A stretch of 11,389 nt of DNA from Propionibacteriaceae bacterium (GTDB lineage: Bacteria; Actinomycetota; Actinomycetes; Propionibacteriales; Propionibacteriaceae), in contig DMIX01000061.1 of assembly GCA_003451975.1 (NCBI GenBank), positions 1 through 11,389 of the forward strand, read 5' to 3'. This document shows, in pieces, positions 1 to 6,595 of this stretch; the first letter of the stretch is position 1; each line of letters starts with the position of its first letter. A program made the translations under genes and the position numbers. A model generated the notes under the pieces. The model had not been told where the DNA came from, did not search any database, and saw only the letters and a list, made by a program, of their open reading frames with translations.

Positions 1-66
1 GACCTGGCCCCGAGCCAGCCCTCCCACGAGGCTGCGTCACCGGCACTTCGCGGCGCGAAGCGGCAG
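1..66 (-). promoter_or_regulatory. Probable expression platform downstream of the B12 riboswitch
   Basis: On the minus strand the RNA after the B12 box can form a 6-bp hairpin with a 3-nt loop (CTTCGCGCCGCGAAG, 60-46) and a second weaker one at 18-4 (CTGGC/GCCAG). There is no U-run and no start codon with a Shine-Dalgarno sequence before the edge. Whether the switch works by termination or by masking a ribosome binding site cannot be told, because the sequence is cut off. Confidence 0.35.
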
Positions 67-260
67 GGCAGGTCTTCGGACTCGTGGGCAGGAACCGGCG
101 ATGCCGGCTCGGGCCTAATGGCCGTCGCTTCCCAGGATTACTCCCAGTGCTTGTTGACGGCTTTCGTTCCCACTCACCGCTGCGGGGCAGCTCCGGATTC
201 ACACCGGATTCCCTCTTTCGACGACTCCCCTGGCTGGAGAGCCGAACCCTTGCGGGAACC
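67..260 (-). ncRNA. Cobalamin (B12) riboswitch, reading leftward
   Basis: This is a cis-acting RNA that binds adenosylcobalamin or a related cobalamin and normally represses the gene that follows. Read on the minus strand it shows the class hallmarks in order: GGTTCC at 260-255, the core GGAATCCGGTGTGAATCC followed by GGAGCTGCCCCGC at about 211-182, a CACTG...CCTGGGAAG element at about 150-125, and the B12 box GAGTCCGAAGACCTGCC at 83-67. The spacing and order match the cobalamin family. The controlled gene lies left of position 1 and cannot be seen; such genes usually encode cobalamin synthesis or transport, or B12-independent isozymes. Identification is by motif recognition, and no covariance model was run. 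Confidence 0.93.
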
Positions 261-290
261 ACTATATGCGGTGACTTACATCGATGTAAC
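261..290 (-). promoter_or_regulatory. Candidate promoter with palindromic operator before the riboswitch
   Basis: On the minus strand a -10-like TATAGT (266-261) lies 18 bp after a -35-like GTTACA (290-285). A perfect 14-bp palindrome, TTACATCGATGTAA, at 276-289 overlaps this -35. A caution is that a start site 6-8 nt after TATAGT would fall at about 254, just inside the first conserved riboswitch strand (260-255). Either that strand is dispensable here or the real promoter lies further right. Confidence 0.35.
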
Positions 291-334: not shown

Positions 335-1699
335 TCAGGCTCTTCGAGAGTCGATCAGCTTCGAATACCACAGCGCGCTGGCCTTCGGAATGCGCCGTAG
401 GTGCCTGTCGACGCGCACCACGCCGAATCTCTTGCTGTAGCCCAGCGCCCACTCGAAGTTGTCCATCAACGACCACACCAGATAGCCGCGAACGTCGGCC
501 CCATCGGCCCGAGCCCGCTGTACCGCTCGTAGATGCTCGCGCAGATATTCGATCCGATCAGCGCTGTCGTCGACGAACCCGGACGCATCAGGCACATCCT
601 CGAAGGCCGCCCCGTTTTCGGTGATCACCATCGGCACGCCGGCTGCGCCGGTGTAGTCCCGCTGCAACCGCATCAACAACCGATACAGGCCATCGGGTTC
701 GATCTCCCAACCCATCGCGGTGCGGGGCAGCCCACGGCTCACCTCGACCGCCTGCGGCGCGGATACCTGGGCGCTCGCCGTATTCGACTCCCCCGTACCG
801 GCCGCGATGGCCTGGGTCGTGTAGTAGTTCACCCCGAGCACGTCCAGCGGTGCCGCAATGGTGTCCAGGTCGCCGTCAGCCACCAAATCCTCGGGCCACA
901 CCCCGGCCAGATCCGCCAACACATCGGCCGGATAGCGCCCGGTGAACAGTGCATCGGCGAACAGCCGGTTGGCCGTGCCGTCGACCCGGCGAGCCGCCTC
1001 ATGATCGGCTGCAGAGTCGCTGGCCGGCACTACCGGCGTGAAATTCAACGTGATACCCAGCTGCGCCTGCGGGTCGGCTGCCCGTAGCGCCCGGACGGCG
1101 CGTCCATGCGCCAACAACAGGTGGTGGGCCGCCTGCAGGGACTCCACCGGATCGGTATGGCCGGGCGCATGCACCCCGGCCGCGTACCCCAGGAACGCCG
1201 AGCACCACGGCTCATTCAGCGTGGTCCAGGTGCGCACCCGGTCGCCAAGCCGGTCGTGAACGGCCAAGGCATACTCCACGAAACGATCAACAGTGTCGCG
1301 ATTGGTCCAGCCTCCTGGCAGCGCTGCGGGAAGATCCCAGTGGTACAAGGTGAGCCAAGGGCTGACCTGGTGCTCCAGCAACTCATCGACCAGTCGGGAA
1401 TAGAAATCCATCCCGGCGGGGGTGACCCGGCCCTCAGCGAATACCCGCGGCCACGACACCGAGAATCGGTAGGTCTGCAGGCCCAAGTCGGCCATCAGCG
1501 CGACATCGTCGCGCATCCGGTGATAGTGGTCGCAGGCGATGCTGCCGTCTTCGGAGTTGAGGATGCGTCCGGGCTCACGACAGAACACGTCCCAGATGGA
1601 ATCGACGCGACCGTCCTCACTGATCGCGCCTTCCACCTGGTAGGCGGCCGTGGCGGCGCCGAAGGTGAAATCGTCAGAAAACTCAACCGGAGTACTCAT
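335..1699 (-). CDS. GH1 family beta-glucosidase
   Basis: This 454-residue protein is the usual length of a bacterial glycoside hydrolase family 1 enzyme. It should hydrolyse beta-glucosides, or related beta-glycosides, by the retaining mechanism. The acid/base glutamate is in TLNEP (E163) and the nucleophile in VITENG (E361). Other family signatures are FGAATAAYQVEG near the N-terminus, RFSVSWPR, LYHWDLP and SLMDNFEW. There is no signal peptide, so it acts in the cytoplasm on imported disaccharides or glycosides. The start at 1699 is preferred over an in-frame ATG at 1717 because AAAGGGAG lies 7 nt before it and the 1717 start would add only six residues. It is 90 bp downstream of tatA on the same strand and may share its transcript, though a TAGGTT hexamer over the tatA stop codon could serve as its own -10. 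Substrate preference within GH1 cannot be read from the sequence. Confidence 0.95.
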   Translation of the reverse strand: MSTPVEFSDDFTFGAATAAYQVEGAISEDGRVDSIWDVFCREPGRILNSEDGSIACDHYHRMRDDVALMADLGLQTYRFSVSWPRVFAEGRVTPAGMDFYSRLVDELLEHQVSPWLTLYHWDLPAALPGGWTNRDTVDRFVEYALAVHDRLGDRVRTWTTLNEPWCSAFLGYAAGVHAPGHTDPVESLQAAHHLLLAHGRAVRALRAADPQAQLGITLNFTPVVPASDSAADHEAARRVDGTANRLFADALFTGRYPADVLADLAGVWPEDLVADGDLDTIAAPLDVLGVNYYTTQAIAAGTGESNTASAQVSAPQAVEVSRGLPRTAMGWEIEPDGLYRLLMRLQRDYTGAAGVPMVITENGAAFEDVPDASGFVDDSADRIEYLREHLRAVQRARADGADVRGYLVWSLMDNFEWALGYSKRFGVVRVDRHLRRIPKASALWYSKLIDSRRA

Positions 1700-1789
1700 C
1701 GACGCGCTCCCTTTCATCGTTGAACGAAGCGTCAGGGGTTCACGCCGTCCTCAGCGTTCCCCGTAGTCGCTGGCGCGACCAGGACAAAC

Positions 1790-2840: not shown

Positions 2841-5273
2841 TCAGGTGAGAGTGAATTCCTCACCGTCGGCGGTGCGTGCCTGGATTGAGTAGGTCCCCGC
2901 CCGCAGGTCGGCGTTCAGGTTGGCGCTGGCCCCAGCTCGGCGCCACGTGATCACCACCTGATCATCACTGGTATCGGCCACCTCGCAGGTGGCGTCGAAG
3001 CCGAACGCAGGGAACTCGCGGCGGAAGCGCAGCAGCTCCAACTGACCGAGCACCACCGGCTTGGTGAGCGCCTCAGCAACCTGAGCGGTAGTCAAATTCG
3101 TGCGATTGATCTCCTTGTGTCCATCGGCGCCCGCGCGGGTCACCGCTTCCAGATCGTTCTCGCCAGCGAGCAGATCCAAGTACCACACCTGCGGCTTACC
3201 CGGCAGGAAGATCTGCAACGCTCGCGCCAACAGCAGCCGATCGTCGCGGGCACCCAAGGCACTGAAGTAGGTGGCGTTCACCTGGTAATACACATTCTTG
3301 GCGCCGTGCAGATCCTTCACCCTGCCGCCACGTCCGGTGACGACCGCGATCAGCGACTCGATCCGTTCCTCGGGAAGCAGCCCGCGCAGGTCCAACAGCG
3401 GAATGCCGTCATGGCTGCCCAGCATGTTCACGGTGTCGATGCCCTGTTCGAGCAGTTCTGAGATCCAGCGTTTCAGCACGGCGGCATCGGCGGTCTCGAT
3501 GGCGTCCAGGATGAGTCCGGGGGCGAAGAAATCGTAGGTGAGGTAACCCAGCGCGCTGAGGGTGCGATGGATGCCCACGTCGTAGCGAGAGTGAATCTCG
3601 GGCAGCAGGACCAGCCCTCGCGCGTCGGCGAGTTCCTTGATGGCGGCCAGCAGCCACCAGGTTCCCGGGTCATTGAGGAAATTCCGGGCACCAGGCTGTT
3701 TGGGGGCATAGGCGAAAGCATCCAATCGGACGATGCGCGCCCCGTAGCCGGCCACGGTGTCCAGAGTCCTGGCGTAGAACTCCCACACCGATTCCGAGGT
3801 GATGTTCAGATCTACCTGTCCGCTATACCGACGCTGTCCGTCCACCTCCGTCACCGCCTGGTAGAAGGTGTTCCAGTACGGCCGCTCGGTGCCGTCTGCG
3901 AGGCGGACCATCACGATCGGCAAACCGGGCTTGCGAAAGAACATGTCGGCGATCAGTTCAGGGTCGGGCTGAATGTAACCGTCGTCGGTCATGGTGCCGT
4001 GCCCGGCCCAGAAAGCGTTCCAGTCGATGAAGAAGTCGGCGTAGGCGGAGGCATCGCCGCGGGCCAGCAGGTCCTGGAACTGCGGAGAGTTCATCGACGC
4101 ATGGTTCAGGACGAAATCCAGCTTCAGATCGATCCCCGCGGCCGCCAGCCGGGTCAGGTCCTCGGGCCGCGCCAGATCGGTATTGAGTTCATAGTCGATC
4201 ACCGAGAACCCTCGGTCGAGGTCGGAGTGATAGAGAGTCGGCAGCAGGTACGCCGAAGCGAAGACCCCGGCCAGCTCTGGACGCTCCACGAAATCGGCCA
4301 CGTCGGCGAGGGTTCCCCCCAGGCTGTCTGGATAGCAGTTCAGCATCGGACCGCCGTCGGGCCTGGCTTTCCCCAACTGGGCTCGGTACTGGGCTTTATC
4401 GATCAACTCTGCGGACTTGGCCACGATGATCGCGGCGCGCCGGGACTGGGCTTGGAGTTTGGCCTGCTCCAGTTCCAACACCACCGTGGTGAAGGGCGAA
4501 TCGACCCCGCGGTCTCGTGCCCGTGAGCGGCGGTGCGCCAAGGTCTCCTCGGGGGTGCTGTGCAACAGGATCGGCAGATCAACACCCGTCAGGTACGGCG
4601 AGTTGCCGTGGGTCCATTCCACGACGATCACCGCGACATCGCTGACATCGACGTCGTCATACCACAGCTCCGCCTCACTACGTCCCATGCGCTTGAGTCG
4701 CAGCGTGGCCGCGCCAGCGTGGAACTGGGCGAGGATGGCGTTGATCTCGGCGAAATCGATCTCGGCTTCACTGCCCAAGTAGGCATCCAACGCCGACCGC
4801 GCTGCACCGTGATAGGCAGCCAACCACGGATAGGCATCGATCAGGGCCGGGTCGGCGTCACGATCCTGGTCCTGCAACTCGGTCAGCACGGCCATCACCT
4901 GAGGCGACACCTCGGTGCCCAGCGCCTGTACTCCAGCCTCGCGATACACGCGCAACCGCTCGTCATCATTGGCGCCCGGTATTCGCCGCGGATAGTTGTC
5001 GCCGGAGAGCACATAGGCGCCCACACCGTGGGCGGACAGACCGTAGGCCAGCAGCGACCCGATTTCGGACTTGCCCACCCCAGAGCCACCGTGCACCGAA
5101 ACCACCGCCCGGCGATGAGGGTCGGCATCGAGGATCGGCAGGAGGGCATCCCACAGCGACGGGAAAATCTGCTGCGCTTTGGTCAGGTGTTCGGCGTTGA
5201 TCTCGATGCGATCACCCGGCATGTCCCCGGTGGGCACATCGGCAAGATCAATCTGCCCGGGAAAGGTAGCCAC
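2841..5273 (-). CDS. Fusion: P-loop kinase-like domain + sucrose-phosphorylase-like GH13_18
   Basis: This 810-residue protein joins two enzymes. Residues about 50-300 form a P-loop kinase-like domain: Walker A GGSGVGKS (62-69), SGDNYPRR (90-97), VIVVEW (215-220) and HRRSRARDRG (247-256), resembling the uridine kinase/phosphoribulokinase superfamily. Residues about 308-810 are a complete GH13 subfamily 18 barrel starting at LNCYPDSLGG. By recalled alignment with Bifidobacterium sucrose phosphorylase, the nucleophile is D518 (RLDAF), the acid/base E559 (LLPEIH) and the stabiliser D622 (SHDGI). The glucose-site residues D353, H391, R516, H621 and R724, and the phosphate-site Y522 and H561, are also present. 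It should therefore be an intracellular alpha-glucoside phosphorylase giving glucose-1-phosphate. The acceptor-side sequence (for example FFRKPGLP, PYWNTFYQ) differs from sucrose phosphorylase, so the substrate is uncertain. The GTG start at 5273 follows GGAAGGA by 5 nt. There is no signal peptide. The kinase substrate is unknown. Confidence 0.92.
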   Translation of the reverse strand: MATFPGQIDLADVPTGDMPGDRIEINAEHLTKAQQIFPSLWDALLPILDADPHRRAVVSVHGGSGVGKSEIGSLLAYGLSAHGVGAYVLSGDNYPRRIPGANDDERLRVYREAGVQALGTEVSPQVMAVLTELQDQDRDADPALIDAYPWLAAYHGAARSALDAYLGSEAEIDFAEINAILAQFHAGAATLRLKRMGRSEAELWYDDVDVSDVAVIVVEWTHGNSPYLTGVDLPILLHSTPEETLAHRRSRARDRGVDSPFTTVVLELEQAKLQAQSRRAAIIVAKSAELIDKAQYRAQLGKARPDGGPMLNCYPDSLGGTLADVADFVERPELAGVFASAYLLPTLYHSDLDRGFSVIDYELNTDLARPEDLTRLAAAGIDLKLDFVLNHASMNSPQFQDLLARGDASAYADFFIDWNAFWAGHGTMTDDGYIQPDPELIADMFFRKPGLPIVMVRLADGTERPYWNTFYQAVTEVDGQRRYSGQVDLNITSESVWEFYARTLDTVAGYGARIVRLDAFAYAPKQPGARNFLNDPGTWWLLAAIKELADARGLVLLPEIHSRYDVGIHRTLSALGYLTYDFFAPGLILDAIETADAAVLKRWISELLEQGIDTVNMLGSHDGIPLLDLRGLLPEERIESLIAVVTGRGGRVKDLHGAKNVYYQVNATYFSALGARDDRLLLARALQIFLPGKPQVWYLDLLAGENDLEAVTRAGADGHKEINRTNLTTAQVAEALTKPVVLGQLELLRFRREFPAFGFDATCEVADTSDDQVVITWRRAGASANLNADLRAGTYSIQARTADGEEFTLT

Positions 5274-5908: not shown

Positions 5909-6595
5909 TCATGCCGCCACGAAGATCTGATCGGCCACCGTTGCCGGGAGCGAGACCTGACGTCCGTCGGCCCGCAACACCAGCATTCGGCCCAGCAATA
6001 CGGCGCCGACTTCGCGCCCAGGCAGCATGCCGACTTCCGCCAAGACCTGCAACACTGCGGCGTCGGCTTGCAGCGCCTCACTGAGACGCTTCAGGACGAC
6101 CACATGTTCACGACCATCGCCGAGGGTCTCGGCCAACACTTGCGCCCCGCCCAGAAAGGCGTCGCAGGCCGAACCGCCACCGCGCTCATCAATCGCAGGA
6201 ATGGGGTTTCCGTAGGGAGATTCAGTCGGTGCGTGCAGAACCTCGACCAATCGCCGTTCCACATCGGTGGAGATCACATGCTCCCAGCGACACGCCTCGT
6301 CATGGACCAGCGGCCAGTCCAGACCGATCACGTCGGTGAGCAACCGCTCGGCCAAACGGTGGCGGCGCATGACCTGAACGGCACGCGCCAGTCCGACATC
6401 GCTGAGTTCCAAGTGCCGGTCAGGGTGAACCGAGACCAGGCCGTCACGCTCCATCCGGGCCACTGTTTGCGACACCGTTGGTCCGGATTGCTTGAGCCGT
6501 TCGGCGATCCGCGCCCGCAACGGGGGCACGCCTTCCTCGATCAGTTCGTAGATGGTACGCAGGTACATCTCGGTGGTATCGATCAACTCACTCAT
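5909..6595 (-). CDS. dtxR: DtxR/IdeR-family metal-dependent repressor
   Basis: This 228-residue protein closely follows diphtheria toxin repressor and mycobacterial IdeR over the first 140 residues. It should be an iron-activated (or manganese-activated) dimeric repressor of metal uptake and storage genes. The N-terminal winged helix-turn-helix (about 1-73) includes LRARIAERLKQSGPTVSQ. The metal ligands are all present at DtxR numbering: site 1 H79, E83, H98; site 2 M10, C102, E105, H106. The C-terminus (about 150-228) is the less conserved SH3-like domain. The length matches the family. An AGGAGG Shine-Dalgarno sequence lies 4 nt before the ATG. It is followed by trxA. I looked for the 19-bp iron box (TTAGGTTAGSCTAACCTAA type) upstream of the genes here and saw none. 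Iron rather than manganese specificity is inferred from similarity to DtxR and IdeR. Confidence 0.95.
   Translation of the reverse strand: MSELIDTTEMYLRTIYELIEEGVPPLRARIAERLKQSGPTVSQTVARMERDGLVSVHPDRHLELSDVGLARAVQVMRRHRLAERLLTDVIGLDWPLVHDEACRWEHVISTDVERRLVEVLHAPTESPYGNPIPAIDERGGGSACDAFLGGAQVLAETLGDGREHVVVLKRLSEALQADAAVLQVLAEVGMLPGREVGAVLLGRMLVLRADGRQVSLPATVADQIFVAA

What the first reader, a model, noticed from the sequence alone, without database searches (positions are those of the whole stretch)
2841..5273. P-loop kinase fused to a catalytically intact GH13_18 phosphorylase
One frame encodes an N-terminal Walker A kinase-like domain (GGSGVGKS) joined at about residue 305 to a whole sucrose-phosphorylase-like barrel. 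The barrel keeps the nucleophile, acid/base, stabiliser, glucose-site and phosphate-site residues, but its acceptor-side sequence differs from sucrose phosphorylase. The enzyme may cleave an alpha-glucoside with phosphate to glucose-1-phosphate, while the fused kinase phosphorylates the released aglycone. Glycerate is one candidate: GH13_18 includes glucosylglycerate phosphorylase, and one class of glycerate kinases belongs to the same P-loop superfamily. That pairing is a guess. I know of no described enzyme with this architecture, but could not search.
Basis: partly seen in the sequence, partly recalled or inferred. Interest (0 to 1): 0.8.

Follow-up and report, generated by a model that had tools for sequence, protein, structure and literature searches.

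The report
Sucrose kinase fused to sucrose-phosphate phosphorylase
One bacterial protein appears to carry both steps of an ATP-dependent sucrose pathway, first putting a phosphate on sucrose and then splitting it with phosphate, and the fusion suggests which end of sucrose this poorly understood kinase family really phosphorylates.

Summary
Window 2841-5273 (-) is one 810-residue frame: a P-loop kinase (about 1-305) joined to a whole GH13_18 barrel (about 306-800). The whole fusion recurs in 37 of 197 genomes searched from its family, so it is no assembly accident.

The proposed function needs changing. The barrel matches the strict sucrose 6F-phosphate phosphorylase (SPP) of Ilumatobacter best (592 bits; next 264) and keeps its +1-site residues. 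The kinase is homologous to the sucrose-kinase domain of AgaSK. It most likely acts first, on intact sucrose: sucrose + ATP gives sucrose 6F-phosphate; + Pi gives glucose-1-P + fructose-6-P.

In 250 Lachnospiraceae genomes the 22 with the kinase are the 22 with the SPP, always adjacent. A single origin of the fusion is rejected on the SPP tree (p 0.001).

Published work puts AgaSK's phosphate on the glucose C6 and has SPP's substrate imported; the fusions argue for the fructose C6 and in-cell supply. Ten searches of an open-licence library found no paper describing the fusion. New variant of a known kind; chemistry untested.

The parts
2841..5273 (-). whole fusion gene, 810 aa
4359..5273 (-). 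N-terminal P-loop kinase domain, residues 1-305 (PRK/uridine kinase/pantothenate kinase fold)
   Evidence: model pLDDT 94.6; fold matches; homology to an AgaSK orthologue's kinase domain
5067..5090 (-). Walker A GGSGVGKS, residues 62-69
   Evidence: read from sequence; K68 in 49 of 49
4998..5000 (-). D92, at the place of the catalytic Asp of the uridine kinase family (role recalled, not from a call)
   Evidence: invariant in 49 of 49 and in 38 of 38 diverse kinases
2874..4358 (-). GH13_18 phosphorylase, residues 306-800
3720..3722 (-). D518 nucleophile (IcSPP D223)
3597..3599 (-). E559 acid/base (IcSPP E264)
3408..3410 (-). D622 transition-state stabiliser (IcSPP D327)
3933..3935 (-). R447 = IcSPP R152, fructose-6-phosphate site
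3282..3317 (-). residues 653-664: K653 (IcSPP K364) to loop A KNVYYQ = KXXYYQ signature of strict SPPs
3114..3116 (-). K720 = IcSPP K434, fructose-6-phosphate site

Best explanation
A bifunctional sucrose 6F-kinase / sucrose 6F-phosphate phosphorylase. Step 1 (kinase, residues 1-305): sucrose + ATP -> sucrose 6F-phosphate + ADP. Step 2 (barrel, residues 306-800): sucrose 6F-phosphate + Pi -> alpha-glucose-1-phosphate + fructose-6-phosphate. Shown here by sequence: the folds, the catalytic and substrate-site residues of both halves, kinship of the kinase to the AgaSK sucrose kinase, conserved pairing and repeated fusion. Inferred: that the kinase accepts sucrose in this protein, that it phosphorylates the fructose C6, and that the fusion hands the intermediate over. 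The ATP cost equals that of sucrose phosphorylase plus fructokinase (one per sucrose), but sucrose is trapped as its phosphate and free fructose is never made.
For: Barrel: best solved match 6s9u, IcSPP, 592 bits against 264 for the next; all nine IcSPP residues that I took from PMC6720575 (R152, D223, E264, D327, K364, K373, Y377, Q378, K434) are kept. Kinase: 174 bits, 36% identity to the kinase domain of an AgaSK orthologue whose GH36 part matches AgaSK 2yfn over 1-719 at 1220 bits; AgaSK and its isolated kinase domain phosphorylate sucrose (kcat/Km 1.06e3 and 2.40e3 per M per s, PMC7688924). Pairing: in 250 genomes of L074's family (Lachnospiraceae) the 22 with a clear kinase are the 22 with an SPP at 62% identity or more, always adjacent, same strand, kinase first; 13 with only other GH13_18 proteins (35-40%) have no kinase match. 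In genome G113, whose SPP agrees with IcSPP, the gene just before it, overlapping by 4 bases, is a shorter related kinase. Short kinases also sit beside the other, TtSPP-type SPP (GFDVHQ) in 4 of 80 loci. Fused/separate needs three changes on both trees; one origin rejected, p-AU 0.0013 (SPP tree) and 0.045 (kinase tree).
Against: No activity was measured for any member of the fusion. The published position for AgaSK is the glucose C6, not the fructose C6 (PMC7688924). The kinase fold is shared with many kinases of other substrates. One long-type kinase locus of 17 has no SPP beside it (L099; only about 1.5 kb of downstream sequence held). Among the ten window proteins that I scanned none is a sugar transporter; the nearest sugar gene is a GH1 beta-glucosidase at 335-1717. 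The full-length model has pTM 0.69, so how the domains pack is unknown.
Confidence: 0.76

Rival explanations
1. SPP barrel as above, but the kinase acts after it: a phosphofructokinase (fructose-6-phosphate to fructose-1,6-bisphosphate) or fructokinase that pulls the reaction forward; sucrose 6F-phosphate is imported.
Against: The homologous AgaSK domain phosphorylates sucrose. GH36 alpha-galactosidase genes or domains, which make sucrose from raffinose, lie in the same cluster in 5 of the 11 loci (L143 by motif only; L138 confirmed, L141 and L146). A fructokinase has no evident place since SPP yields no free fructose.
Confidence: 0.1
2. The kinase makes sucrose 6G-phosphate (glucose C6), as reported for AgaSK, which another enzyme uses; the fusion joins two independent sucrose activities.
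For: Published assignment for AgaSK (PMC7688924); that group's model keeps the two sucrose phosphates in separate routes. Sucrose 6G-phosphate was not in the substrate table of RgSPP, so its use by an SPP is not excluded by experiment.
Against: No GH32 hydrolase that could use it was found in the window's genome (genome 74.7% complete). Repeated fusion and exact co-occurrence with SPP would have no evident reason. In the section I read the product was identified by mass spectrometry, which alone does not place a phosphate on one ring or the other; the original AgaSK paper was not held.
Confidence: 0.09
3. One reading: glucosylglycerate (or similar) phosphorylase plus glycerate kinase.
Against: Loop A has Gln664 in 49 of 49, not Glu; SPP phosphate-site residues conserved in 49 of 49; best match is SPP by a wide margin.
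Confidence: 0.02

Closest known systems
Ilumatobacter coccineus sucrose 6F-phosphate phosphorylase (IcSPP, PDB 6s9u)
   Same: Barrel sequence, catalytic triad, KXXYYQ loop A, all fructose-6-phosphate site residues named in the paper
   Different: IcSPP is crystallised as a single-domain protein; in G113, whose SPP agrees with it, a separate, shorter kinase gene lies just upstream
Ruminococcus gnavus AgaSK (alpha-galactosidase/sucrose kinase) with neighbouring RgSPP
   Same: Homologous sucrose-kinase domain (with an orthologue); SPP of the same type directly downstream
   Different: There the kinase is fused to the C-terminus of a GH36 alpha-galactosidase and the SPP is separate; here the kinase is fused to the N-terminus of the SPP
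Uridine kinase / phosphoribulokinase / pantothenate kinase fold family (PF00485 and kin)
   Different: The window kinase itself matches no Pfam model above cut-off, nor does the L142 fusion for PF00485

Membership tests
Strict sucrose 6F-phosphate phosphorylase (IcSPP/RgSPP type) | GH13_18 catalytic triad | tested here: met
   D518, E559, D622 in 49 of 49
Strict sucrose 6F-phosphate phosphorylase (IcSPP/RgSPP type) | loop A KXXYYQ (PMC7178133) | tested here: met
   window KNVYYQ; 130 of 145 homologues found keep the pattern; of the other 15, four are shorter than 720 aa
Strict sucrose 6F-phosphate phosphorylase (IcSPP/RgSPP type) | +1-site R152, K364, K434 | tested here: met
   R447, K653, K720 in 49 of 49
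Strict sucrose 6F-phosphate phosphorylase (IcSPP/RgSPP type) | cleaves sucrose 6F-phosphate, not sucrose | not testable with these tools
   needs assay
NCBIfam TIGR03852 sucrose phosphorylase equivalog | score over 334.4 bits | tested here: not met
   306.2 bits
TtSPP-type SPP | GFDVHQ loop A | tested here: not met
Glucosylglycerate phosphorylase | Glu in place of loop A Gln | tested here: not met
   Q664 in 49 of 49
AgaSK-type sucrose kinase | homologous kinase domain with Walker A | tested here: met
   174 bits, 36% identity to an AgaSK orthologue's domain
AgaSK-type sucrose kinase | fused to GH36 alpha-galactosidase | tested here: not met
   fused to GH13_18 instead
AgaSK-type sucrose kinase | phosphorylates sucrose | not testable with these tools
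   needs assay
D-glycerate 3-kinase | family-level sequence match | tested here: inconclusive

The most novel reading that the evidence does not exclude
The window kinase belongs to a wider, unnamed set of ATP-dependent disaccharide kinases that prime a sugar for phosphorolysis: one branch makes sucrose 6F-phosphate for two different SPP types (and lies beside sucrose-phosphate-synthase-like genes), another lies beside GH65 phosphorylase-like genes and, in one case, is fused to trehalose-phosphate synthase and phosphatase domains, so would make trehalose-6-phosphate. The glucose-C6 assignment of AgaSK would then be wrong, and the supposed import of sucrose 6F-phosphate unnecessary.
Probability: 0.4. 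Interest if true: 0.8.

Novelty: new variant of a known kind. Interest (0 to 1): 0.58.

Why it matters
[quoted passage not shown] One polypeptide holding both, arisen more than once, says they are consecutive steps and turns an open question into a one-tube assay. It would also give an ATP-driven route for sucrose that needs no PTS in Propionibacteriaceae, and a single enzyme that makes glucose-1-phosphate and fructose-6-phosphate from sucrose.

Tried and rejected
Rejected: glycerate/glucosylglycerate pairing (loop A and +1 residues); ordinary sucrose phosphorylase (equivalog cut-off not met; IcSPP far the best match); assembly or frameshift artefact (37 of 197 family genomes). Sequence search of the kinase against the PDB gave nothing significant (best E 0.022), and whole-protein Pfam gave nothing. 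Own-genome GH32 search empty; own-genome S6PP search gave one partial match (26.7 bits over 58 of 247 positions, over the cut-off), which I read as a general HAD protein, not as sucrose synthesis. The full-length model does not settle domain packing. I could not read the original AgaSK paper (not held).

Limits. Those loci were found through the kinase; the reverse direction (SPP to kinase) was tested only in the 250 genomes, where I set the identity cut after seeing the gap (62% and up against 35-41%); three of the 22 (G314, G469, G513) also hold another GH13_18 protein; two (G469 at a contig end, G513 with a stop in one piece) are incomplete. The probability ignores shared ancestry. Four weak kinase hits (E 2e-4 to 7e-4) were left out as other P-loop proteins. 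Trees used 44 rows: P0046 was dropped by my split rule, and G247, L099 and the truncated L083, L087, L039, L047 were not put in. Three changes can also be one gain and two losses. The 16-row clade test was chosen after I had seen the tree. In one search partners were called by phmmer score within 2 kb; three short-kinase and six distant loci showed none of them (L077's GH65 gene lies just beyond 2 kb). 'SPS-like' means kin to the sucrose-phosphate synthase model only: the four scanned (L036, L038, L042, L048) are under its cut-off, and for L042 an MshA model scores higher.

Full report

The barrel is a strict SPP. Among solved structures the best match is 6s9u, the sucrose 6F-phosphate phosphorylase of Ilumatobacter coccineus, at 592 bits; the next is 264 bits. 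I took from passages of PMC6720575 and PMC7178133 the residues and the loop A motif KXXYYQ that mark this type, and mapped them: R152, D223, E264, D327, K364, K373, Y377, Q378 and K434 are all present in the window protein. In 49 aligned fusion proteins all but K373 are invariant; K373 is Lys in 42 of 49. Over all 145 homologues listed by two searches, 130 keep both KXXYYQ and GGSGVGKS; 15 lack the exact loop motif, four of these being shorter than 720 residues.

The kinase is a sucrose kinase by descent. In 250 genomes of the family of L074's genome (Lachnospiraceae), two loci (L137, L138) show the layout described for R. gnavus: a regulator and three transporter genes (by look, not scanned), a 932-938-residue GH36 protein with a C-terminal kinase, then a KXXYYQ SPP. 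The L138 protein matches AgaSK 2yfn over residues 1-719 at 1220 bits; 2yfn covers only the GH36 part, so the kinase comparison is to this orthologue, not to R. gnavus itself. Its kinase domain and the window's align at 174 bits, 36% identity. PMC7688924 (outline, introduction, kinase results and discussion read) reports that AgaSK and its isolated kinase domain phosphorylate sucrose. The same introduction says the product carries the phosphate on the glucose C6.

Pairing. In those 250 genomes, the 22 with a clear kinase (E below 1e-12) are exactly the 22 with an SPP at 62% identity or more to the L074 SPP; in all 22 the kinase comes first, same strand, 1-194 bases between matched parts. Thirteen further genomes carry only other GH13_18 proteins (35-40%) and no kinase match. 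Among 80 named loci fetched through the kinase, 17 have the window-type long kinase: 15 beside or fused to a KXXYYQ SPP, one (L083) beside a GH13_18 gene cut by the contig end, one (L099) with none. Of 31 with the short kinase, 7 have an SPP-like GH13_18 gene (one KXXYYQ, four GFDVHQ, two cut before loop A), 16 a sucrose-phosphate-synthase-like glycosyltransferase, 6 an unknown 700-residue protein, 3 none of these; one locus, L039, has both of the first two, and its synthase-like protein carries a sucrose-6F-phosphate phosphatase domain. In 296 genomes of the window's phylum the short kinase is immediately upstream of a KXXYYQ SPP in three; in one of them (G113) the SPP's N-terminal sequence and numbering agree with the IcSPP chain printed, and kinase and SPP frames overlap by four bases. 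Two other genomes (G108, G086) have the short kinase without a GH13_18 gene that I could see.

Fusion. The actinobacterial fusions form one clade (support 100/100 on the SPP tree, 99/99 on the kinase tree); Lachnospiraceae have fusions of their own at two other places (L141 with L143; L142). Both trees need three changes between fused and separate. Holding all 18 fusions as one clade is rejected on the SPP tree (p-AU 0.0013) and, weakly, on the kinase tree (0.045); holding the actinobacterial ones with L142 is rejected as well (0.0054). AgaSK is a further fusion of the same kinase to another partner. In the window's own family 37 of 197 genomes hold the whole fusion and two more hold it cut by contig ends.

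Mechanism. The simplest reading that fits all of this is two consecutive steps in one chain: phosphorylate sucrose at the fructose C6, then phosphorolyse. SPP of this type released products from sucrose 6F-phosphate and not from sucrose (RgSPP, PMC6521584 section read; sucrose 6G-phosphate was not in its table). The -1 site residues that bind an unmodified glucose are kept here (D353, H391, R516, H621, matched to the paper's list by motif), which makes a substrate phosphorylated on the glucose C6 unlikely; that last step is inference. PMC6521584 instead proposes dietary sucrose 6F-phosphate taken up by an ABC transporter and PMC7178133 names a PTS or an unknown source. The mass spectrometry cited for AgaSK's product in PMC7688924 does not by itself settle the carbon; the original paper was not held, so I cannot judge its evidence.

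Novelty. Ten paper searches of the open-licence library found no description of a kinase fused to a GH13_18 phosphorylase; I judged most hits by their listing. A review of glycoside phosphorylases (PMC8950772, word search) does not use the word kinase, and another (PMC11046441) has none of the terms I tried. Figures, supplements and subscription papers were not seen. [quoted passage not shown] So the parts and the neighbourhood are known; the fusion, its repeated origin, the exact co-occurrence and the consequence for the regiochemistry are, as far as I could search, new.

Wider pattern, less certain. Of 32 loci with more distant kinases, 26 lie within 2 kb of a GH65 gene; six loci (L062, L069, L072, L085, L086, L088) also carry a TPS/TPP-like gene, and in L077 the kinase is fused to trehalose-6-phosphate synthase and phosphatase domains near a GH65 gene. 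Of the two GH65 proteins I scanned, that of L024 is fused to a beta-phosphoglucomutase-like HAD domain and that of L077 is not. That looks like a trehalose counterpart of the sucrose system, but nothing here tests it.

Noticed in passing
L077:4832-7666 and 163-2652: Distant kinase of this family fused to GT20 trehalose-phosphate synthase and trehalose-phosphatase domains, with a GH65 gene upstream (Kiritimatiellae); possible trehalose kinase.
   Followed up: partly
L054-L103 (26 of 32 distant-kinase loci): Distant kinases lie beside GH65 phosphorylase-like genes, by record title mostly in Bacteroidota.
   Followed up: partly
L036, L038, L039, L040-L046, L048-L053: Short kinases of this family beside sucrose-phosphate-synthase-like glycosyltransferases in many phyla (16 of 31 short-kinase loci).
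   Followed up: partly
L029:3812-5938, L031, L032, L033, L035:8635-10728, L076: An uncharacterised protein of about 700 aa follows the short kinase in 6 of 31 loci; two scanned (L029, L035) have no Pfam match and L035 has weak similarity to a GH13 maltodextrin glycosyltransferase (1gju, E 1.5e-4). L020:5601-7775 may be another (no Pfam match; not compared).
   Followed up: partly
L025:8001-10445: A Bacteroidota SPP that branches among clostridial SPPs (83/94) but is paired with the short instead of the long kinase: possible partner swap.
   Followed up: no
L139:5696-7846: Long kinase joined in one frame to a PF00144 beta-lactamase-like serine hydrolase domain, upstream of an SPP.
   Followed up: no
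window 2841-5273 against P0005, P0059, L078: Most of the 120 relatives listed are about 55 residues longer; in those I read the extra stretch lies in the barrel after NTFYQ. The window lineage lacks it.
   Followed up: no
P0086, L143, L145: SPP-type barrels that lack the exact KXXYYQ pattern but keep YYQ; P0086 and L143 keep the phosphate-site residues.
   Followed up: partly
window 50-266 (-): Cobalamin riboswitch (Rfam RF00174, 98.1 bits) whose gene would lie outside the window.
   Followed up: no
window 335-1717 (-), 5909-6595 (-); L078: A GH1 beta-glucosidase and a DtxR-type repressor flank the fusion gene; genes that look alike flank it in L078 (by eye).
   Followed up: no
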